Source of the DNA: Christensenellaceae bacterium
Lineage (GTDB): Bacteria; Bacillota; Clostridia; Christensenellales; UBA1750
Direction: 5' to 3'
Length of the DNA: 64,000 nucleotides
Assembly: GCA_031280685.1 (NCBI GenBank)
Contig: JAITGM010000007.1
Location: 62,001-126,000, forward strand
Shown here: piece after piece, positions 17,232 through 45,349 of the stretch
Position numbering within the stretch: the first letter of the stretch is position 1
Layout: every line of letters begins with the position of its first letter
Position numbers and translations under genes: made by a program
The notes under the pieces: model-generated
Databases searched by the model: none
The model's input: the letters and a program-made list of their open reading frames with translations, nothing else
What the model was told of the DNA's origin: nothing

Positions 17232-17758
17232 TATTTCACCGCCTCCCACTGCCACATTCCCGGCGTATCAGGCGGGTAAACGCAATTCGGCATATCGGCC
17301 TTCGCCAGATATACCGCGCCTTTGTAGCTGTAATATTTGCCGCTTTCCACCGCTACCAGAATACCCGCCGTTTCCGGGTATGGCATGGGATCGTCCTTTG
17401 TCCCGGCTGCGGTAAGCTCCACAAGGCGGTAATACGCAAAAGTGGTTTCAACCGGGTAGGCTGCATTCGACGTGTGCGCCGCCACGATTTCAAAGAGAAG
17501 ATCGCCGCTGCGTATGATTTCGCCTTTCTTGTAGGCTGTGTCAAGCGCATATTCTGGATAGTCCACAATGTCAGCGGATTGCAGGATCATTTCGTCAGTA
17601 ATGACATTTGCGCCGCTGGCACGGTCTGCTGCAATCTGCGCCCGGAATGAAAGCGAAAGCAAAGCGGCGGTGCTTTCGCCCGCCGCCTGTATCTGCTCCA
17701 TATCCTTTTTTATGGCCTCTGTTTCGTCCGGCCTGTCTTTTTTATGATTTACACTCAT
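17231..17758 (-). CDS. Phage tail accessory protein with CBM5/12-like segments
   Basis: 175 aa. Two short modules resemble the carbohydrate-binding type 5/12 fold: YALDTAYKKGEIIRSGDLLFEIVAAHTS and GKYYSYKGAVYLAKADMPNC...PGMWQW. Such modules are frequent in proteins at the tip of Firmicute phage tails, where they may touch cell-wall sugars. It directly follows the DGR target gene with a 4-base overlap, so it belongs to the tail tip/receptor-binding group. Confidence 0.6.
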   Translation of the reverse strand: MSVNHKKDRPDETEAIKKDMEQIQAAGESTAALLSLSFRAQIAADRASGANVITDEMILQSADIVDYPEYALDTAYKKGEIIRSGDLLFEIVAAHTSNAAYPVETTFAYYRLVELTAAGTKDDPMPYPETAGILVAVESGKYYSYKGAVYLAKADMPNCVYPPDTPGMWQWEAVK

Positions 17759-19488
17759 TCAAAATTACCTCCCACACCGGAAACCCAGCATTCGCCGACA
17801 GCGCCGTTTCTGGCTACCGTAATACGAAGCCCCAAGCCGGAATTTATGGCATACTGTGACGTATTTTCAAATACGTGCGCCGTACCCTGCAAAACCTTTG
17901 TTGTCATGTCCTCCCACACGGGCGACGTGTCAAACGGGTTATTGCTCACTTCCACGCGGAAGGTTGCGCCCGCGGGTATCTGCCTGTGAACAATGACATT
18001 TACGCGCTTCGGCTGCGCGTCAGCATTGAAAGGCTGCGAAAGCCCGATTGTGAAGCCGTCAACCTGTTTCGTGAATGTCATTGTGCGGGAAGCAGTATTC
18101 CCGGCGCTGTCTGTGGCCGTGATTTTCAAAGAATGCTGGCCGTTTGCCAGCTTCACGAAGTCCACGCCCGCCACATTCGCCGTTTGCTCCACGCCCAGCG
18201 GCGGCGTGAACGTGCGGATCGTGTTGTCGCCCACGGCCTCAACCGCCGTTACCGCGTCGCCGTCCGGATCGGTCACGGTGTAGGCGTAGCCGAAGTCCCC
18301 GGACTTAACGCCCAAATCGCCGTTTGTGCCGGAAATGGCCGGCGGCTGGTTGTGTATGACGGCAACCGCGCCGCCTGTTACATAGGCGCTTTCGTTTCCG
18401 TAGCTGTCCACGGCCTTCACGCGGTATTTTATCGTATTCCACGCCGTAGACACGGTTTCGCTGAACGTCAGCCCCGCCGTGCTTGTGGCCTGCGTGTAGC
18501 TGCCGTTATTTACGCTTCGTTCCAGCTTGTAGGTGATTGCGTCGCCGTCCGGATCAGTGGCCGCGCCCCACGAAATATTTATAGGCTGGCTGCTGTAGCA
18601 CGTCGAAGGCGTGGTTATCCCCGCGGGCGCGGAAGGCGCACTATTGAAGATAATTTCATAGTTGCCATCTGAATTTACACTGTCAGATACCAAGATTTCA
18701 GAGGACAGATTACAAAGCGGACGAACGCCCCTGACACCGTAGTACGCGCTGTAGTTGATCAACGCGCCGGACGTGATGACGCTGCGCACGTTGCAGGAGT
18801 TCGACACGTTAGGCGTGCGAAGCCACCAGTACCACGCCGCCGTAGTATTCAAGCTTGCGTTTGTGTACTCTGAATTACTCACGCATTCGCTTGTCGGATA
18901 CGCAAGGCGGCTTGCATCGTCGCTGAAAAGCGCCAGCTTCACGCCCTCGGCAATGCTGTTTTCATTGGCAAGCCCTACTTCGGTAGTGGACGGCAAAAAC
19001 ATTTTCGCCGTGAAGGTTTCGTAGCTGCCGCCGTCTACCGTTGCTTTAACCACCGAAAGCGTAGTTGTCATAAGCGCATCTACAAACTGCGCCGGAAGCA
19101 TGGCAAGGAAGCCCGCCCACTGATCGTATTCGTTATAATTCTGGTACACGTTCGCATTCGTCGGCGGCGCGTCCGCGCTGTGCTTCGCGCTGTACCACGC
19201 TCCCGCCGCGGCGTTGCTGTTCAGCCATTGCAGAATATTTGAATGAATGTGCCTGTTATTACCGTACTGCTTGCGGTTGCTGTCGCTGTTGCTGGCCTCT
19301 ATAGCGTCAGAACACATTAGCTGTATAATTTTATCCGTTATGAGCGTTACCGCCCCGGACGGATAACCCGTATGGTTCTTGTCAGCAACCTTGAATACAA
19401 TTTTGCTGCCGAAACGCGATTGAAACGCCGAATTGACAGGTATTTCAACCTTGTTCCCCACCGCCAGCGTGCTTAATGCCTTTGGCAT
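17755..19488 (-). CDS. DGR target 1: tail protein with DUF6273-like variable domain and Ig/FN3-like repeats
   Basis: 577 aa. Residues about 1-265 form a DUF6273/C-type-lectin-like domain (WYWWLRTPN...GVRGVRPLC) whose residues 228-258 are variable region 1. An FN3-like domain (about 275-365), a second Ig/cadherin-like domain with two TDPDGDA motifs, and a C-terminal beta-rich region follow. By analogy to Mtd-type and other DGR targets it is inferred to be the receptor-binding tip of the tail. Start ATG 19488 follows GGAAGGTG; a GTG 9 bases upstream lies within that site. It overlaps the RT gene by 44 bases. Confidence 0.88.
   Translation of the reverse strand: MPKALSTLAVGNKVEIPVNSAFQSRFGSKIVFKVADKNHTGYPSGAVTLITDKIIQLMCSDAIEASNSDSNRKQYGNNRHIHSNILQWLNSNAAAGAWYSAKHSADAPPTNANVYQNYNEYDQWAGFLAMLPAQFVDALMTTTLSVVKATVDGGSYETFTAKMFLPSTTEVGLANENSIAEGVKLALFSDDASRLAYPTSECVSNSEYTNASLNTTAAWYWWLRTPNVSNSCNVRSVITSGALINYSAYYGVRGVRPLCNLSSEILVSDSVNSDGNYEIIFNSAPSAPAGITTPSTCYSSQPINISWGAATDPDGDAITYKLERSVNNGSYTQATSTAGLTFSETVSTAWNTIKYRVKAVDSYGNESAYVTGGAVAVIHNQPPAISGTNGDLGVKSGDFGYAYTVTDPDGDAVTAVEAVGDNTIRTFTPPLGVEQTANVAGVDFVKLANGQHSLKITATDSAGNTASRTMTFTKQVDGFTIGLSQPFNADAQPKRVNVIVHRQIPAGATFRVEVSNNPFDTSPVWEDMTTKVLQGTAHVFENTSQYAINSGLGLRITVARNGAVGECWVSGVGGNFE
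18715..18807 (-). other. DGR variable region VR1
   Basis: 93 bases aligned without gaps to the template repeat at 20704-20796. They differ at nine positions, all of them A in the template on the coding strand. The 3' end in coding sense is an adenine-free 17-base block (GGGGCGTTCGTCCGCTT), the expected G/C-rich initiation segment. Homology to TR stops sharply on both sides. Confidence 0.96.
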
Positions 19489-20527
19489 CGTCGTCACCTT
19501 CCTTTTTGAATAGTTTGTCGTAGTAAATATCCATCCGGTGAATTAAGTGGTAACAGTCACCTTTAGAGGCATGAGCGCGCCAGCTTTGATATGATTGCGC
19601 AACCGTGGCGCGGTCAATTTTGCCTTCGTCCAGCAAATGCCGCATTTTCTTTAACTTCCTGCGCGCGTTATTCTTTGACTTGCGGCGCACCTTTCGGACA
19701 ACGCCGCCCGTTTCGGTCAAATACGTATGAAAGCCTAAAAAGTCAATACCGTTTTTCAGCGGATAAATATTTGTTTTTCCATTAAGCGAAAGCCCCAAAG
19801 CGCCGACGTGCTTTTCGATCTCCCGCAAGCAATGGCGCAAATATTCCTTGTCTTCATGGATTAAGTAGAAGTCGTCCATGTAGCGCCCGTAGAATTTCAC
19901 GCCCAATTTTTCCTTGATAAAATGATCCATGTCATTCAGGTAGAGCAAGGCGAACAGCTGCGAAGTTTGGTTGCCTATAGGAATGCCGACATTGCCTTCG
20001 GTGCTGTCTATAATCATATCCAGCAACCAAATGACATCGGGATCGGCAATGCGTTTGCGGATTAAAAGTTTTAACAGGTCGTGCCTAATGGAATAGAAAT
20101 ACTTTGAAATGTCGCATTTCAATACCCACCCGTCAACACTGTTTCTTCTGTAAAACTTCCGCATGAAGCCCTCCAGCCTGTCAAGCCCGTAATGCGTGCC
20201 TTTTCCTACTTGCGAAGCGTAGTTGTCTTGAATGAAACTGCGCGTAAAATTCGGCTGTAAGACATTATCGCATAGGGCGTGCTGCACAACCTTGTCTTTG
20301 TAGCTGTTCGACATGACAACCCGCTTTTTCGGTTCGTACACCATAAATACGTTGTACGGCGAAAGCGTGTATGTCTTCGTGCGTAGCTGCTCACTTAACA
20401 GGTTCAAAGCCTCCAGCAAATTCACTTCAAATTTAGCTGCCGCCTGCTTCCACCTTTTGCCCCGGCGCGCCGCTCTGTAGGCGCGGTAGAGGCTTTCAAA
20501 CTGGTAAACCTTTTCAAATTCGCTCAT
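19445..20527 (-). CDS. DGR reverse transcriptase
   Basis: 360 aa. Catalytic Asp lies in KCDISKYFYSI (about residue 139) and in YGRYMDDFYLI (YMDD at about 216-219). The IPIGNQTSQ motif at about 182-190 is the DGR-lineage version of RT motif 4. C-terminal GIDFLGFHTYL and a basic thumb region follow. The protein copies TR RNA into cDNA with errors at adenines, and the cDNA then replaces VR sequence. No endonuclease or maturase domain is present, so it is not a group II intron RT. It sits directly after TR and overlaps the first target gene. Confidence 0.96.
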   Translation of the reverse strand: MSEFEKVYQFESLYRAYRAARRGKRWKQAAAKFEVNLLEALNLLSEQLRTKTYTLSPYNVFMVYEPKKRVVMSNSYKDKVVQHALCDNVLQPNFTRSFIQDNYASQVGKGTHYGLDRLEGFMRKFYRRNSVDGWVLKCDISKYFYSIRHDLLKLLIRKRIADPDVIWLLDMIIDSTEGNVGIPIGNQTSQLFALLYLNDMDHFIKEKLGVKFYGRYMDDFYLIHEDKEYLRHCLREIEKHVGALGLSLNGKTNIYPLKNGIDFLGFHTYLTETGGVVRKVRRKSKNNARRKLKKMRHLLDEGKIDRATVAQSYQSWRAHASKGDCYHLIHRMDIYYDKLFKKEGDDDAKGIKHAGGGEQG

Positions 20528-20703
20528 AAAAGAAACTCCTTGCCGTATATAGCCTTCGCCTTGCCGGGCAATGCATCGGCATCGGCAATCCTGTATTTAT
20601 CCCCGCTGTGGTTGGCGGCGACGGGATGCACCTTCCTTTGATGGTGGTTCTCTGTTTTCGGCCGGCCGCATGGCGGCGGCCTACTCAATCGCAATTTCCA
20701 CCG

Positions 20704-20796
20704 AAGCGGACGAACGCCCCTGTTACCGTTGTACGCGTTGTTGTTGTTCAACGCGCCGGACGTGTTGACGTTGCGCACGTTGTAGGAGTTCGACAC
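20704..20796 (-). other. DGR template repeat (TR)
   Basis: A 93-base non-coding unit between avd and the RT, read on the minus strand. It carries clustered AAC codon-like triplets corresponding to NSYNVRNVNTSGALNNNN, the adenine-rich positions that become variable. It matches VR1 over all 93 bases and VR2 over 78 bases except at adenines. The transcript from 20818 to 20528 would be the template RNA. Confidence 0.96.
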
Positions 20797-20818: not shown

Positions 20819-21217
20819 CTATGCTCTCGTTTTATCCCGCTTTTTCCACGCGGCGGTCATAGCCTTAACTTCGATAACCAGTTTTGACCAATATTCGCAA
20901 CTGGAAAGCGAAATGAAGCCCATTTCCTGCGAAAGCTCTATAAGAAAAAGAAGCTCCTTGCAATAGGTCATCGCCCTTGCCTGTAGCCTCTGCCGCTGCA
21001 CCTTTTCGGCTGCGTCCCGTAGGTCTAATTCGTTGGCCTCTAAGACGCATTCAAAAATGCTTAATGATTTATCCTGTATCCGGTTCACTATGGTAAATCG
21101 GTACTTCTTCGGGAATTTGTTTGTGTTGCTGCTCACTGTGAAGGTGTGCTTTACAAGGTCTTTCGCCTTCACAATCACCCCGAATTCGTTTTGTTCCTTT
21201 TGCTGTTGTGGCGGCAT
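20819..21217 (-). CDS. avd: DGR accessory variability determinant (Avd)
   Basis: 132 aa, predicted all-helical four-helix bundle with a basic surface. Recognisable segments are VKAKDLVKHTFTVSSNTNKFPKKYRFTIVNRI, LEANELDLRDAAEKVQRQRLQ and MTYCKELLFLIELSQEMGFIS, the usual pattern of bacterial Avd proteins. In studied DGRs, Avd forms a pentameric barrel that binds RT and TR RNA and is needed for cDNA synthesis. It lies immediately upstream of TR, the usual avd-TR-RT order. Confidence 0.9.
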   Translation of the reverse strand: MPPQQQKEQNEFGVIVKAKDLVKHTFTVSSNTNKFPKKYRFTIVNRIQDKSLSIFECVLEANELDLRDAAEKVQRQRLQARAMTYCKELLFLIELSQEMGFISLSSCEYWSKLVIEVKAMTAAWKKRDKTRA

Positions 21218-24364: not shown

Positions 24365-27300
24365 ATTCCAACCTCCCGCGCCGCTAACCTGAACTGTTTT
24401 GCCGCCGCGCGCTGCTGCTCGGCGTAGCTTGTTTCGTTAGCGTAAATAGTCTGGTTGACTGTCACGCCGCCGCGCTCACGCCCGCCGTTTCTGCCTGGCT
24501 TCTTCGGCGCTTCTGGCACAACCGCATTCGTGGCTTTGCGTATGGTCTTTTCCACGTTGCGCATTTCGTCGGCGAAGCCCTCACCGATACCCAGCGCCAT
24601 AAATTCACCGATCCCAGCGAATACCAATGAAGGTGAATTTATGTCCATCTCTTCTTCTACCGCTCGGACAATGGCGCGCATCATGGAACGCACGTTGCTT
24701 TCCAGCCAGTTTTGCATATTCTGAAAGCCCTGCCAGATACCCCGCACCATATCTTCGCCAGCTGTAACGAACTGATTTTTGAAACTGTTTACCGCCGTTA
24801 CAATAGCCGTTATGACTTGCGGAACCTTGCTTGTAAGCTCTGATATGCCGGAAACCATACCGGAAGCAATGGCTTTGTCCATGTCCACGCCTTCCGTAAC
24901 AAACTTTTGGTGCTGCGCTACGAAGGCGGTAATGATAGACTGCACCAGCTGCGGAACCTTGCCCGTAATTTCCACTGTCCCGGCAATCATGCCGGAAGCT
25001 ATTTGCTTGTCAATGTCGCGGCCTTCCGTTACAAACTTCTGGTGCTGCGACACGAAGGCGGTAATAATGGACTGCGTTATTTGCGGCACTTTCGCCGTAA
25101 TCTCGGTTGTGGCCGCAACCAGCCCGGAAGAAATTTGCTTCGCAATGTCCTTGCCGATATTTATAAGCTGCTGGCTCTTCGCGGTCAGCCCGGTAATGAT
25201 TTTTTCTACAATGGCGTTTACCGCTGCGTCAAGCTGCGACACGTTAGACATAATGCCGTCGTTCACCGCTCGGATTGCCTCGGCTGCCGTAACGCCTCCA
25301 GCGCTGCCCATCGCGGCTTGCATGTCGCCTTCCACGCCGCCCATTTCGTCGCCGAAGCCCACGCCTACGCCATCGGCCATATTGCCGCCGATTTCCGCAA
25401 AGACGGTTGACGGGCTTTTAATGCCAAGAAAGCCTTTTATCCCGTCCACAATCCCGCCGAAGAAGCCTGTAACTTTTTCTTTGAGCCATTCCCCCGCGGC
25501 GGTAATGCCTTCCCATATGCCTTTTATGAGATTGCCGCCCACTTCGATAATTTGCGGGAATAGCCCTGTGAACGCCTCCACGATACCGCCCACAATCTGC
25601 GGAACCGCTTTTACGATTTCAATTATGATCGTTGGTAGGTTTTCGATTAAGGCTACAAACAGCTGCACGCCCGCTAAGATAATTTGATCAATGTTTCCTA
25701 TGACGGCCTCTACAATGCTGCTGATAATCTGCGGTATGGCCTGCACTATGGTAACAATGATTTCCGGCAACGCCTGAATGAGCGAAACAAGAAGGTCAAT
25801 GCCCGCCTGAATAATCAGCGGTATGTTTTCCGTAAGCGCCGTTATAATGCTGTCGATTATCTGCGGTATGGCTTCCACGATAGACGTTATAATATCCGGC
25901 AACGCCTCTACAAGCGCGGTCAATAGGTCAATTCCCGCCTGAATGATTAGCGGTATGCTTGTAAGTATCGCGGTTATTATGCTGTCAATTATCTGCGGTA
26001 TGGCCTCCACCAGCACGGGTATAGCTGCAATCAAGCCTTCCGCAAGCCCAAGCACCAGTTGCAAGGCCGCTTCGATAAGAAGCGGTATATTGTCAATAAG
26101 CCCCTGAACCGTCGTCGTTATGGCCTGAACCGCTGCCGGAATAAGCCGCGGCAACGCCGATCCTATACCTTGCACAAGCGAAGCCACCAGCTGCACGGCT
26201 GCCGAAATGAGTAATGGCAGATTATCAATAAGCGCGCCCACTATTGTTATAAGCGCATCGACAGCCACCGGGATCAAGTCCGGCAGTAGTGACAAAAGCA
26301 TTTCCAGCACTTCGCTAAACAAGCTTGTAACCGTATTCAGCAAAACCGGAAGCAGTGATTGAAGCGCGCTTGAAATTGCGCCCATCGCGGAAGGAAGGGC
26401 GGCAACAATGTTATTTATGATTGGAACGACGTTTGAAACAACCGCGCCGAAAGCGTCTACAAGGTTTTCCGTAAGGTTTGTCATGTCGGCATTGGCATTT
26501 CCCAGCCCCGCCGTGAATGAGCCAAGCGCCGCTTGAAGCAATCCAAGCGAACCCGTAACGGTTTGTGTGCTTTCCCGCGCGAAGTTTCCTGCGTATTGCT
26601 CTGTTTTCTCAAAGAACATTTGCATAGCAACTTCTGCTTTTTCCGCTTCCGTCGCCTTGCTCCACACAAAATCAAGGCCGTTTGCTACGGCATAGGCTTC
26701 AATACTGGTTGCGTTCATGGCAACGCCCAAGTTATCCATCATTGTGAAATTGCCTTTAGCCGCTCCCGCTACGCTGTCAAGGGCTACTTGCATGTCAATA
26801 CCCATGACAGAAGCCATATCTGCGGCGCGCTGCATGGCCTGCTCTGTTAATTCAAGGCTTTTTTGCTGCTCTACGCCGCTGCCCTGAAAAAGCGCGCCCA
26901 TTTTGTTAGCCGTTGCAAGGTATTCGCTTTGTGAAACGCCAAGGTTCTTATATGCTTCTTCGCCCGTCTTCTGTATCGAAGCCGCATACTCACCGAATAC
27001 AGCTTCGGAGCCGCCAAGATTTTGTTCTAATTCGCCGAACTGCTGGACAACTTCTTTTCCAAGCTTTATAGCCGCTGCACTCGCCGCAATAGTCGCCGCG
27101 CCCAAAGCCGCGCCAACACCTTTTAGAATGCCGCCCAGCCCCTCGAATTTCCCGCCGGCCTTTTCTGCCTCTTCACCTGTTTTCTTGATTTCGTCGCCGA
27201 ATTCGTCTGCGTTTTTTTCCGCTTCTTCCAATTCGTCGCCCGTTTTGTCCAACTCTTTTTGAGTTTTGATCATTTCGGCCTTTGCGTTGTTCAGGTTGGT

Positions 27301-40102: not shown

Positions 40103-40232
40103 TCCCGCGGCCTCCTTTTATAATGTTGCGTATGCAGGCCAGCACCACGGCCACGATCAGCGCCGCGCCTCCTGCGCAAGCAACGCCCACAAGCAAATAG
40201 AAGGCGTTTGCCATAAATTGAAATGCCGTCAT
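40086..40232 (-). CDS. 48-aa single-pass membrane peptide downstream of the VR2 protein
   Basis: ATG 40232 overlaps the stop of the VR2 gene (ATGA) and its own TAG overlaps the start of the next gene. One hydrophobic helix (FYLLVGVACAGGAALIVAVVLACI) is followed by a basic tail (RNIIKGGRGNGKPR), so the C-terminus should face the cytoplasm. Tight translational coupling to the DGR-diversified protein suggests stoichiometric expression and perhaps membrane anchoring of it; this is inference. Confidence 0.7.
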   Translation of the reverse strand: MTAFQFMANAFYLLVGVACAGGAALIVAVVLACIRNIIKGGRGNGKPR

Positions 40233-41044
40233 TTGTCATCGCCTCCGAAAAAGTTTATAGTGCGGGCGAAGTGGAACATCAATTCCCACGCTTGCGTTTC
40301 ATTAAAGCCCGCCGTTTGAAATTCGCTATACATATTAAATAAGGTATGTGCCAGCTGGCCGAAGTCGCATTCGTCTTCGTCCGGCTCTTCTTTTTCCTGT
40401 GCGTATGGCGCGGGCGGCGCTTCGCCGAAGAAGTTTTTGTAAAGCGCGTCCATGATTTCCGAAAATGGCGCTTTTACACGCTGCTTCACTTCGGCTTCAT
40501 CGTAAGATACCGAAATATCAGATTTCAGATAACAAAGCGGACGAACGCCCCAGCTACCGTGGTACGCGCGGCTGTTGTCCAACGCGCCGGACGTGTTGAC
40601 GCTGCGCACGTTACGGGAATTTCCGTTCCGCTCGGTCGTCCACGGTGTACAAGTCCACCACCAATCAGACGCATCCGGGATCAGCTTTCTATAATGGCGG
40701 TACATGTCGCATGTGATAAGGCCAATTGTTACGGTTTCCTTGCCGTAGTCCGTTAACCCGTCGTCCGAAGTCAAATCCAGCGCAATAGGCCGGAAAGCTT
40801 CCTTGTCCGCGCCGCCCTCTATGAGCGCGCTCAAAAACTCTTCATTCAAATATGCGCGAAGAGAAGAGGCGGCAAAGTCGTTTTTGTTGTCTTCGTCGAA
40901 GGCGCGTTCCTCCAGCACGTCGGCGGCAAGGCACAACGCCGCATTTGGCCTATGCTCCAGCACAACCCATTTCACGCCGCCGTATGTAAAGCGGCTTCCG
41001 GCCTCCAGCGTCGAAAGTGTCCCGGTTTTCATTGCGGTTTCCAT
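40229..41044 (-). CDS. DGR target 2: early DUF6273-like protein carrying VR2
   Basis: 271 aa. The domain (LRAYLNEEFLSALI...WWWTCTPW...VRSVNTSGALDNSRAYHGSWGVRPLC) is homologous to the variable domain of the tail target, and residues 145-170 are VR2. No signal peptide or Ig-like repeats are present; the C-terminal 75 residues are a helical tail (FSEIMDALYKNFFGEAPP...CDFGQLAHTLFNMYSEFQTAG). It therefore seems to be an intracellular protein. It lies in the early operon after the MazG-like gene, with AAGGAG before its ATG, and is coupled to a small membrane peptide. Confidence 0.88.
   Translation of the reverse strand: METAMKTGTLSTLEAGSRFTYGGVKWVVLEHRPNAALCLAADVLEERAFDEDNKNDFAASSLRAYLNEEFLSALIEGGADKEAFRPIALDLTSDDGLTDYGKETVTIGLITCDMYRHYRKLIPDASDWWWTCTPWTTERNGNSRNVRSVNTSGALDNSRAYHGSWGVRPLCYLKSDISVSYDEAEVKQRVKAPFSEIMDALYKNFFGEAPPAPYAQEKEEPDEDECDFGQLAHTLFNMYSEFQTAGFNETQAWELMFHFARTINFFGGDDK
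40535..40612 (-). other. DGR variable region VR2 (remote)
   Basis: 78 bases aligned without gaps to the 3' part of the template repeat at 20704-20781. It differs at eight positions, all adenine in the template. The adenine-free 17-base 3' block is identical to TR and VR1. Beyond it, VR1 and VR2 continue to resemble each other (CTTTGT.ATCTG) while TR does not, as expected for the IMH side. It lies about 19.8 kb from TR. Confidence 0.95.
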
Positions 41045-43124: not shown

Positions 43125-43924
43125 ATAGCCGCCTCCTTTATCCAAAGAACTTCAATGCGTGCTTGCCCCCGCTCGGCGGCGGCTTTCTTTTCAATGCGCT
43201 GCCAGCCCGCCAAGCGCTCGTTGTAAAGTTCGTTGTCGTACCCGCTCAAAACCACGGAACCGGAATGCGCCGCCAATGCCTCCAGTAATTCCACATGCTG
43301 CGCATCGTTCATTTCAATGGCATATATGTTTTTTCGGCGGGTTCCCGGTACATATGGCGGATCGGCATAAATAAGACATTTTGGATCGTTGTACTTGCGG
43401 ATAAGCTCCAAAGCGTCCATGCACTCTATTTGCGCTTCCATTAGGCGGCCGGCCGCTTGTATGATCCTCTCTGGAACCTTCGCCCATTGCTGCGGCATTG
43501 CGGGCGCTCTGCCTGTAGCGCTGTGCCTCCAGCCTGTTTTTTGCCCGGTAAGCGTTCCGAAAGCCTGCCAGCATCGCACAAGGAAAAGGCGTGCGGCGTA
43601 TAAGTCGGCTTCGTCGCTATGCTTGCAAGCCTCCAGCGCTTCAAGCGCCGTGCAAGCGATTTCGTATTCTTCACGCGCCCACGGCGTTAAGGCTATGAGC
43701 GCCGCCAACTCTTCCGGTTGGCTACGAATGACGCGAAACAGATTTACCACGTTGTGATCGCGGTCGTTTATGGTTTCCAGTCGGGCGGGTTTTTTGTTAA
43801 AAAATATGGCTCCGCTACCGAAGAATGGTTCAAGGTAGATTTCATGCGCCGGAAGTTGTGGTATAATCCAGCTCGCCGCGCTCCATTTTGCACCGGGATA
43901 TTTCAAAAGCGGTCGTTGTGTCAT
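43121..43924 (-). CDS. DNA adenine methylase, Dam/D12 class
   Basis: 267 aa from ATG 43924 (GGAGG upstream). N-terminal PLLKYPGAKWS and YLEPFFGSGAIFF bind SAM; the catalytic motif is CLIYADPPYVPGTR. RARLFL-type features (AARLFLVRCWQAFGTLTG) also fit the D12 class. It methylates N6 of adenine, probably in a GATC-like site. Its start overlaps the stop of the C5 methyltransferase gene (ATGA). Confidence 0.92.
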   Translation of the reverse strand: MTQRPLLKYPGAKWSAASWIIPQLPAHEIYLEPFFGSGAIFFNKKPARLETINDRDHNVVNLFRVIRSQPEELAALIALTPWAREEYEIACTALEALEACKHSDEADLYAARLFLVRCWQAFGTLTGQKTGWRHSATGRAPAMPQQWAKVPERIIQAAGRLMEAQIECMDALELIRKYNDPKCLIYADPPYVPGTRRKNIYAIEMNDAQHVELLEALAAHSGSVVLSGYDNELYNERLAGWQRIEKKAAAERGQARIEVLWIKEAAI

Positions 43925-45264
43925 ATAGCTGCCTCCCTGCCCCGCCATACATCGAAGTAACCCGCTCGGCGCACTGCGAAAGCGTCCCCGCGCTGGACAA
44001 TATCCGGGTAATTGCTGCTTGCTATTTGCATTGCGTATTTGTCTATCTCAAAGGCGTAATACTTTATGTTGTTGTATCCCAACTGGTCGAAGCAATAGCG
44101 CCCCGTGCCGATCCCGTCATACATGGACATAACAACAATTCTTTCATCCAGCGGAACGCCCGCCAGCGCGTGGCGTAAAAGGTGTATAATAACTTCCGCT
44201 GTCCAACCGTTGCCAAGCCCTCTATACGCTTGCGTATCAGATACCGCCCGGCAATAATCGTCCGGCAAGGTCTGGAGGCGGCAAGCCTCGGTTACGCTTA
44301 ATTTTCGGATTATGTAATAGCCATCCGGTAATTTGATAGGATAGGTTTTGCCCTTAATCTCAATTTGTCCAGCTTCCACGCGATACACTGGCCGGCCGCG
44401 CTCCACATTATCAGAAGGCACGGCATAAAGCCCGGTTCGGCTACTGCTTTTATCGCTACATCCTCCTGCGGTCGTGGCCGCTTGCAGGGCAACGCTTTTT
44501 GCGTCTACCGCATAAATGCGCTTTGATTGTGTTGGTTTCAGCTCGCCCTTTTCATTCGGAAGACAACCAACCCGGACGGGTACGCCTTGATAACCCTTCG
44601 TGCGGATTATGTTTTCTTCGAAATTGCGTTTGCCGCATTTGTCATATGAAGCGCGGAAGCATTCGGCCTTTTCCCGGTCGGCAACTGGCATAGCGTAAAG
44701 CCCCGTTGCTGCACCCCCGCCGCCGTCCGTCGCTTTTAGTGTAACGCTCTTTCCGTCAACGCCATAAATGCGCCCCGCCTGCTGCTGGTAGTCCGGCCAC
44801 GTTCCCACACGGTTAGGTGCTACCGCCTCGGCAACCATATTCCGGGTATGTCGCTTCAAACTGTCTTCCGGCGTGGGGCCGTGCGCCGTGGTAAGTGTGT
44901 ATGCTTTATCGCTCCAACTTTCGCCCCGCTCCAAAATGTCTTGAAGTAATATGCCGCGGTCTTCCGGCTGCGGAACGTCGCCGAAATTGTGGCAATAGAA
45001 CCGTTCCCGCCGCTGCGCGGATACCAGCGCCGAATTGATATACTGGAGCGGCGCGCCAAGCTCGGCGGCTATCTGGTCTTTGATCGGCTGCGCGGCGCTT
45101 TTGTTGTTCTCGTATAAGAAGAAGTCCGGCTTGAAGCGCTCTTTGGCGATAAGGTAGTTTCTGAATAGCTCCCACCCTATGCCCTCGGCTTCGGTTTCGC
45201 GGTTCTTGCTCTGCGCTATGCTCCAGTGCGTGCAGGGCGAACCGCCGATTAAGAATTTGATCAT
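43921..45264 (-). CDS. Circularly permuted DNA cytosine-5 methyltransferase
   Basis: 447 aa from ATG 45264, with AAAGGTG upstream. Motif order is unusual: the N-terminus begins with motif IV (IGGSPCTHWSIA, catalytic Cys), then motif VI-like FFLYENN and motif VIII-like SAQRRERFY. Then come a variable target-recognition stretch with two repeated RIYxVDxKSV...GLYA(M/V)P units and motif IX/X (LSVTEACRLQTLPDDY, YRGLGNGWT). SAM-binding motif I (VVMSMYDGIGTGRYCFDQLGY) comes last, with motifs II-III. The DGIGTG form resembles Dnmt3-type sequences. It probably protects phage DNA. Confidence 0.88.
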   Translation of the reverse strand: MIKFLIGGSPCTHWSIAQSKNRETEAEGIGWELFRNYLIAKERFKPDFFLYENNKSAAQPIKDQIAAELGAPLQYINSALVSAQRRERFYCHNFGDVPQPEDRGILLQDILERGESWSDKAYTLTTAHGPTPEDSLKRHTRNMVAEAVAPNRVGTWPDYQQQAGRIYGVDGKSVTLKATDGGGGAATGLYAMPVADREKAECFRASYDKCGKRNFEENIIRTKGYQGVPVRVGCLPNEKGELKPTQSKRIYAVDAKSVALQAATTAGGCSDKSSSRTGLYAVPSDNVERGRPVYRVEAGQIEIKGKTYPIKLPDGYYIIRKLSVTEACRLQTLPDDYCRAVSDTQAYRGLGNGWTAEVIIHLLRHALAGVPLDERIVVMSMYDGIGTGRYCFDQLGYNNIKYYAFEIDKYAMQIASSNYPDIVQRGDAFAVRRAGYFDVWRGREAAI

Positions 45265-45349
45265 GTTAGTTAGCACCTTTCGTTAATGGTTAGCCAGGCG
45301 GGGGACGGGTTCGATCACGTCTGGCGGGGCAGTCAATATTTGAAGCCGC

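What the first reader, a model, noticed from the sequence alone, without database searches (positions are those of the whole stretch)
40535..40612. Shared IMH-side flank of VR1 and VR2 absent from TR
Downstream of the adenine-free GGGGCGTTCGTCCGCTT block both VRs continue CTTTGT.ATCTG... and stay similar for about 40 bases, while TR diverges at once. That is the expected IMH versus IMH* difference that makes transfer one-way from TR to VR, and it supports both VRs being competent recipients.
Basis: seen in the sequence. Interest (0 to 1): 0.7.

Follow-up and report, generated by a model that had tools for sequence, protein, structure and literature searches.

The report
Repeat signal marking hypermutation target sites
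The DNA just after both hypermutated gene segments of this prophage carries a short beat of "TCT/CTG" words every 7-8 letters; the same signal follows the target segments of many distantly related mutation-generating retroelements but never their templates, so it is probably a landing mark that tells the machinery which copy to rewrite.

Summary
VR1 and VR2 flanks match 28/40; TR matches each at 7/40, which is chance level. Protein homology does not explain it. The flank is the local form of an array of 3-5 TCT/CTG words spaced 7-8 nt, present after VRs of many divergent diversity-generating retroelements (DGRs) and absent after TRs. In a first set (82 clusters), chains of four or more units occur in 22 VR flanks against 0 TR flanks and 0.13 expected. 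A test fixed before the data were seen gave 20 of 26 VR flanks, 0 TR flanks, 0.8 expected. The array persists where the gene stops before it. Where it is translated, it runs through three reading frames and forces serine codon TCT (63% against 11% elsewhere in the same genes). The DGR is a new member of the nd12-like two-target type. I found no description of the array in the open-access literature searched. Which factor reads it is unknown.

The parts
40535..40612 (-).
   Evidence: 78 nt, 8/8 mismatches to TR at adenines
40495..40534 (-). VR2 3' flank: TGTTATCTGAAATCTGATATTTCGGTATCT; array units (TCT) at 40529, 40522, [40515 decayed to TTT], 40507
40229..41044 (-). Target gene 2, 271 aa, DUF6273 C-terminal part holds VR2
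   Evidence: PF19789 E 4.7e-11, phrog_9958
18715..18807 (-). VR1, variable repeat in target gene 1
   Evidence: 93 nt, 9/9 mismatches to TR at adenines
18675..18714 (-). VR1 3' flank: TGTAATCTGTCCTCTGAAATCTTGGTATCTGAC; array units (TCT) at 18709, 18702, 18695, 18687 (steps 7, 7, 8)
17755..19497 (-). Target gene 1, 580 aa, N-terminal DUF6273 plus Ig-like domains (tentaclin/Hoc-like)
   Evidence: PF19789 E 1.8e-31, phrog_10993 E 2e-189
20704..20796 (-). TR, template repeat
20639..20703 (-). TR 3' flank (spacer towards RT): no array; folds into a GGTGG/CCACC-closed structure with a GC-rich inner stem
19445..20527 (-). DGR reverse transcriptase, 360 aa, IGNQTSQ and YMDD
   Evidence: PF00078, phrog_1423
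20819..21217 (-). Avd accessory protein, 132 aa
   Evidence: phrog_3206 'Avd protein of DGR' E 7e-27, NF033474 42.7 bits (below its cut-off of 80)

Best explanation
The shared flank is a cis-acting target-site element of the DGR: an array of 3-5 YCTG-like words at about 7.4-nt spacing on the coding strand, immediately 3' of VR. It marks VR, and not TR, as the place where the mutagenised cDNA may be installed. Shown here: the array, its orientation, its restriction to VR flanks, its presence in untranslated DNA, and the DNA-level codon constraint where it is translated. Inferred: it is read as a strand-specific and possibly single-stranded signal by the RT-Avd-RNA-cDNA complex or a helper, next to where the 5' end of the cDNA pairs with the coding strand; it works with the hairpin where both exist, and without it in this phage. 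Because both VRs carry it (4 units and 3 units), one TR can feed both genes.
For: Divergent VR flanks (82 clusters, at most 60% identity): TCT/CTG chains of four or more units at 7/8 nt in 22 VR flanks; 0 TR, 0 further downstream, 0 inside VR, 0 reverse complement, 0.13 expected from shuffles. Test fixed beforehand on a new RT group: 20/26 against TR 0, reverse complement 0, far 1, shuffles 0.76. Pair distances form a comb at 7/8, 14/15 and 22/23; where a hairpin follows, the array mostly ends 4-10 nt before the stem (23 of 25), and the VR-end-to-stem distance clusters around 37 nt. Lag-7/8 signal persists in 49 clusters whose gene stops within 12 nt of VR. In coding flanks TCT starts at +5, +12, +19/20 and +27, three frames; Ser TCT 97/153 against 295/2619. 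Both two-target prophages of this genome have it after all four VRs and after neither TR.
Against: No functional test. BPP-1, the hankyphage, cr10_1, ANMV-1, Bise and Shimadzu lack the array by this definition, so it is not universal. VR2 has one decayed unit. BPP-1 homes with only IMH plus hairpin (PMC3240598).
Confidence: 0.68

Rival explanations
1. Pure protein homology: both flanks encode the last strand of the DUF6273/C-type-lectin domain (RPLC.L.S.I.VS), so the DNA looks alike.
For: Both targets match PF19789 and the similarity falls inside or next to its end; related peptides RP[LA].NL.S.ILVSD recur in relatives.
Against: The array occurs in untranslated DNA in dozens of unrelated clusters. 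It runs through three reading frames at 7/8-nt steps and Ser codon TCT is 63% in the flank against 11% in the same genes. The 5' flanks, also in the same domain, are not alike.
Confidence: 0.07
2. Shared ancestry only: target 2's VR plus flank was copied from target 1 (or the reverse) and has not yet diverged.
For: One-sided similarity (3' flank only) in the window.
Against: The decay pattern is not random: unit positions are kept and intervening codons vary over 56 flanks; unrelated DGRs have the same spacing with no other DNA similarity.
Confidence: 0.06
3. One reading: the flank is the IMH, and TR's own flank is IMH*.
For: Recipient and donor differ exactly where the array is. BPP-1 IMH (TCTGTGACCACCTGATTCTTG) holds CTG-10-CTG-7-TTG while IMH* (TCTGTGCCCATCACCTTCTTG) has lost the middle CTG (sequences), so IMH may be a degenerate array.
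Against: BPP-1 IMH/IMH* are homologous near-copies inside the repeats; here the flanks share nothing (7/40) and lie outside them.
Confidence: 0.14
4. The words are lagging-strand primase start sites (E. coli DnaG starts at CTG; from memory) that open a single-stranded gap for cDNA pairing.
For: CTG is the commonest unit in the proteobacterial-type set; DGR editing prefers the coding strand as lagging-strand template (PMC12875486).
Against: Primase needs no 7-8 nt spacing; Bacillota arrays are TCT rather than CTA/TTA; changing DnaG dose or recruitment did not alter BPP-1 editing in E. coli (PMC12875486), though BPP-1 lacks the array.
Confidence: 0.05

Closest known systems
nd12 and nd4 phage DGRs with two targets (PMC10743442)
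   Same: RT 74.8% identical to nd12 over 341 aa; adjacent tentaclin-like target 1 (DUF6273 plus Ig domains) and remote DUF6273 target 2; one TR for both; VR flanks of nd12 carry the same array
   Different: The paper compares the repeats and the proteins; the passages found there do not describe a repeat array in the flanks
BPP-1 DGR target site: IMH plus hairpin/cruciform (PMC3240598)
   Same: A cis element 3' of VR, outside TR/VR homology, on the recipient only
   Different: BPP-1 has a GC-rich hairpin with GAAA loop just after VR and no clear array; VR1/VR2 here have an array and no such hairpin
BalMu-1, VP58.5 and phiARM81mr DGRs
   Same: Array (TCTG, CTG or TTG words at 7-8 nt) directly followed by a GNNA-loop hairpin
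   Different: Untranslated, with hairpin; in the window the array is translated and the hairpin is missing
Faecalibacterium phage Lelie two-target DGR (PMC11792537)
   Same: Two DUF6273 targets, one TR, TCT words in both VR flanks
   Different: Spacing less regular; RT 45% identical

Membership tests
Diversity-generating retroelement | RT with (I/V/L)GxxxSQ and YxDD | tested here: met
   IGNQTSQ and YMDD in P0003; phrog_1423 E 1e-134
Diversity-generating retroelement | TR/VR pair differing only at TR adenines | tested here: met
   VR1 9/9 over 93 nt, VR2 8/8 over 78 nt
Diversity-generating retroelement | Avd accessory protein | tested here: met
   phrog_3206 E 7e-27; NF033474 and PF22296 hits below their curated cut-offs
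Diversity-generating retroelement | Target VR in a C-type-lectin-like domain | tested here: met
   PF19789 (DUF6273) in both targets; C-lec fold of this domain from PMC10743442
BPP-1-type target site | IMH/IMH* near-identical with few differences at the 3' ends of the repeats | tested here: not met
   17-nt identical adenine-free block, then 7/40 identity
BPP-1-type target site | 7-10 bp GC-rich hairpin with 4-nt GRNA loop 4-34 nt after VR | tested here: not met
   No such hairpin in the 65 nt after VR1 or VR2; weak folds, z -1.75 and -0.48
nd12-like two-target DGR | Target 1 with 5'-proximal VR in DUF6273 plus Ig domains next to RT; remote target 2 with VR near the 3' end of a DUF6273 gene | tested here: met
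Diversity-generating retroelement | Ongoing retrohoming into both VRs | not testable with these tools
   Needs experiment; nd12-like relatives vary in both VRs (PMC10743442)

The most novel reading that the evidence does not exclude
A general, previously undescribed DGR target code: a strand-specific array with one word per about 7.4 nt, 3-5 words, is bound as single-stranded DNA by the pentameric Avd (one word per subunit; 5 x 7.4 nt = 37 nt, the median VR-end-to-hairpin distance) and so selects recipients and sets the direction of transfer. The BPP-1 IMH would be a degenerate form of it.
Probability: 0.15. Interest if true: 0.92.

Novelty: new variant of a known kind. Interest (0 to 1): 0.76.

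Why it matters
How a DGR finds the copy it may rewrite, and why TR is spared, is still open: the 2026 reconstitution paper calls cDNA integration incompletely understood (PMC12875486). A sequence signal that recurs across divergent DGRs makes this directly testable. It would also let remote targets be found from sequence and inform the design of targeted mutagenesis systems. Within this phage it explains how two unlike genes share one template.

Tried and rejected
Coding-only explanation: rejected by untranslated flanks, frame spread and codon bias. Canonical hairpin in VR1/VR2 flanks: not found. Pairing of the array with CAGA words in the TR spacer RNA: CAGA is about as common in array loci (28/43) as in the others (21/39). 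Rfam match for the TR spacer: none. Link to Avd presence: no contrast, Avd is in all 245 loci. Clade property: 30 of 56 RT clusters carry the array, with 14 changes on the RT tree and at least 9 forced by well-supported branches; only weakly clustered, so old and repeatedly lost or gained. DUF6273 genes without DGR as a control: only about two usable, neither with an array, too few to count. slicing failed for the alignment and was redone.

Full report
What is there. The minus strand carries a complete DGR: Avd (20819-21217), TR (20704-20796), RT (19445-20527) and target 1 (17755-19497, VR1 18715-18807). A second target lies 20 kb upstream in transcription order (40229-41044, VR2 40535-40612). 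VR1 differs from TR at 9 positions and VR2 at 8, all of them TR adenines. RT has IGNQTSQ and YMDD. Both targets hold DUF6273; target 1 is a Hoc-like/tentaclin protein. The nearest named relative by RT is phage nd12 (74.8% identity), which has the same two-target layout (PMC10743442).

The observation. The three copies share GGGGCGTTCGTCCGCTT. Beyond it VR1 and VR2 agree at 28 of 40 positions, TR with either at 7 of 40, and similarity stops after about 40 nt. The finding's coordinates denote VR2; the flank is 40495-40534.

First test: is it only protein homology? The two flanks encode CNLSSEILVSD and CYLKSDISVSY. Four synonymous choices are identical (CTG, TCT, GTA, TCT), while the 5' flanks, in the same domain, show no similarity. 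In 56 distinct translated flanks from relatives, TCT starts pile up at +5, +12, +19/20 and +27 after the RPx codons. These steps of 7, 7 and 8 nt fall in three reading frames. Serine is TCT in 97 of 153 cases in the flank and in 295 of 2619 elsewhere in the same ORFs (Fisher p about 2e-48, but the genes are related, so this p is only indicative).

Second test: other DGRs. From 284 loci a script found 191 TR/VR pairs, in 82 clusters whose VR flanks are at most 60% identical. TCT-TCT pairs at lag 7/8/9 number 44/26/11 in the first 60 nt after VR, 0/1/0 after TR and 3/3/2 in nt 60-120. In 49 clusters whose gene stops within 12 nt of the VR end they are still 22/15/5. Chains of four or more TCT/CTG at 7/8 nt: 22 of 82 VR flanks; none after TR, further downstream, inside VR or on the reverse complement; 0.13 expected from dinucleotide shuffles. 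The unit is roughly (A)TCTG(W)AA; in the first set no chain exceeded five units.

Third test, fixed in advance. A new scan with BalMu-1, VP58.5, phiARM81mr, Bise and BPP-1 RTs gave 26 clusters unlike all earlier flanks. Chains of three or more: VR 20, TR 0, far 1, reverse complement 0, shuffles 0.76 (maximum 4 in 200). Chains of four or more: VR 15, shuffles 0.06. Over 123 clusters pooled (a looser, greedy clustering), 75 have the array (3 units 27, 4 units 34, 5 units 13, 6 units 1). The spacing comb is 7/8, 14/15, 22/23. Where a GNNA-loop hairpin follows, the array ends 4-10 nt before it in 23 of 25 cases, and the VR-to-stem distance has a median of 37 nt. Array plus hairpin thus often form one module.

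Within this genome. A second two-target DGR prophage sits on contig C16 (RT at 102352-103398). Its VR1' flank reads TGAATCTGCCATCTTCAATCTTGGTATCTGATAG and its remote VR2' flank TTGCTTCTGAAATCTGACATCGCGGTATCTGAC, while its TR flank has no array. Window VR2 and VR2' share the same three kept positions (+5, +12, +27). In 2.24 Mb the three-word pattern ATCTN{4,5}TCTN{4,5}TCT occurs at six places, two of them the VR1 flanks.

How it probably works. Known from BPP-1: cDNA is made from TR RNA by RT-Avd; a recipient needs IMH and, for efficiency, a hairpin downstream (PMC3240598); editing is favoured when the strand complementary to the cDNA is the lagging-strand template (PMC12875486). The array lies on that same (coding) strand, just beyond where the cDNA's TR-derived part pairs. 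A 7.4-nt period is out of phase with B-DNA, which argues against side-by-side binding on one face of a duplex and fits single-strand or ring-like recognition; this is inference. I propose that the array docks the cDNA complex or keeps the site open, and so marks recipients. In nd12-like phages, where the flank must also encode protein, the array is kept by codon choice and the hairpin has been given up.

Limits. Loci were gathered by RT similarity and all have Avd. Clusters are not fully independent. Six named DGRs lack the array, and it is scattered on the RT tree. Nothing here was tested in cells. The literature check covers open-access full text only; neither the searches nor the passages found in the 14 papers opened describe the array. 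Guo et al. cite unpublished surveys of VR downstream regions, so prior awareness cannot be excluded.

Noticed in passing
own genome, contig C16:95500-113000 (L299) and C16:58000-66000 (L300): A second, divergent (RT 55% identical) two-target DGR prophage in the same bacterial genome, with its own Avd, TR, tentaclin-like target and remote DUF6273 target.
   Followed up: partly
window 20639-20703 (-) and TR flanks of relatives: TR 3' flanks in this group share a motif GAGTA + GC stem + GCCGAAAnCAGA closed by GGTGG/CCACC, probably the structured spacer RNA that recruits RT-Avd; no Rfam match.
   Followed up: partly
L143 (BPP-1) IMH: BPP-1 IMH holds CTG-10-CTG-7-TTG, and IMH* lacks the middle CTG; IMH could be a degenerate form of the array.
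   Followed up: no
VR2-type remote targets: window, L300, L014, L141: Remote VR2 flanks each keep three of the four unit positions, with a different or the same one decayed, suggesting three units suffice.
   Followed up: partly
window 24818-26112 (-): 132-nt spaced repeats inside the 1077-aa ORF (probable tape-measure protein, by position; no Pfam match).
   Followed up: no
window 43921-45276 (-): C-5 cytosine DNA methylase gene near target 2, in the prophage.
   Followed up: no
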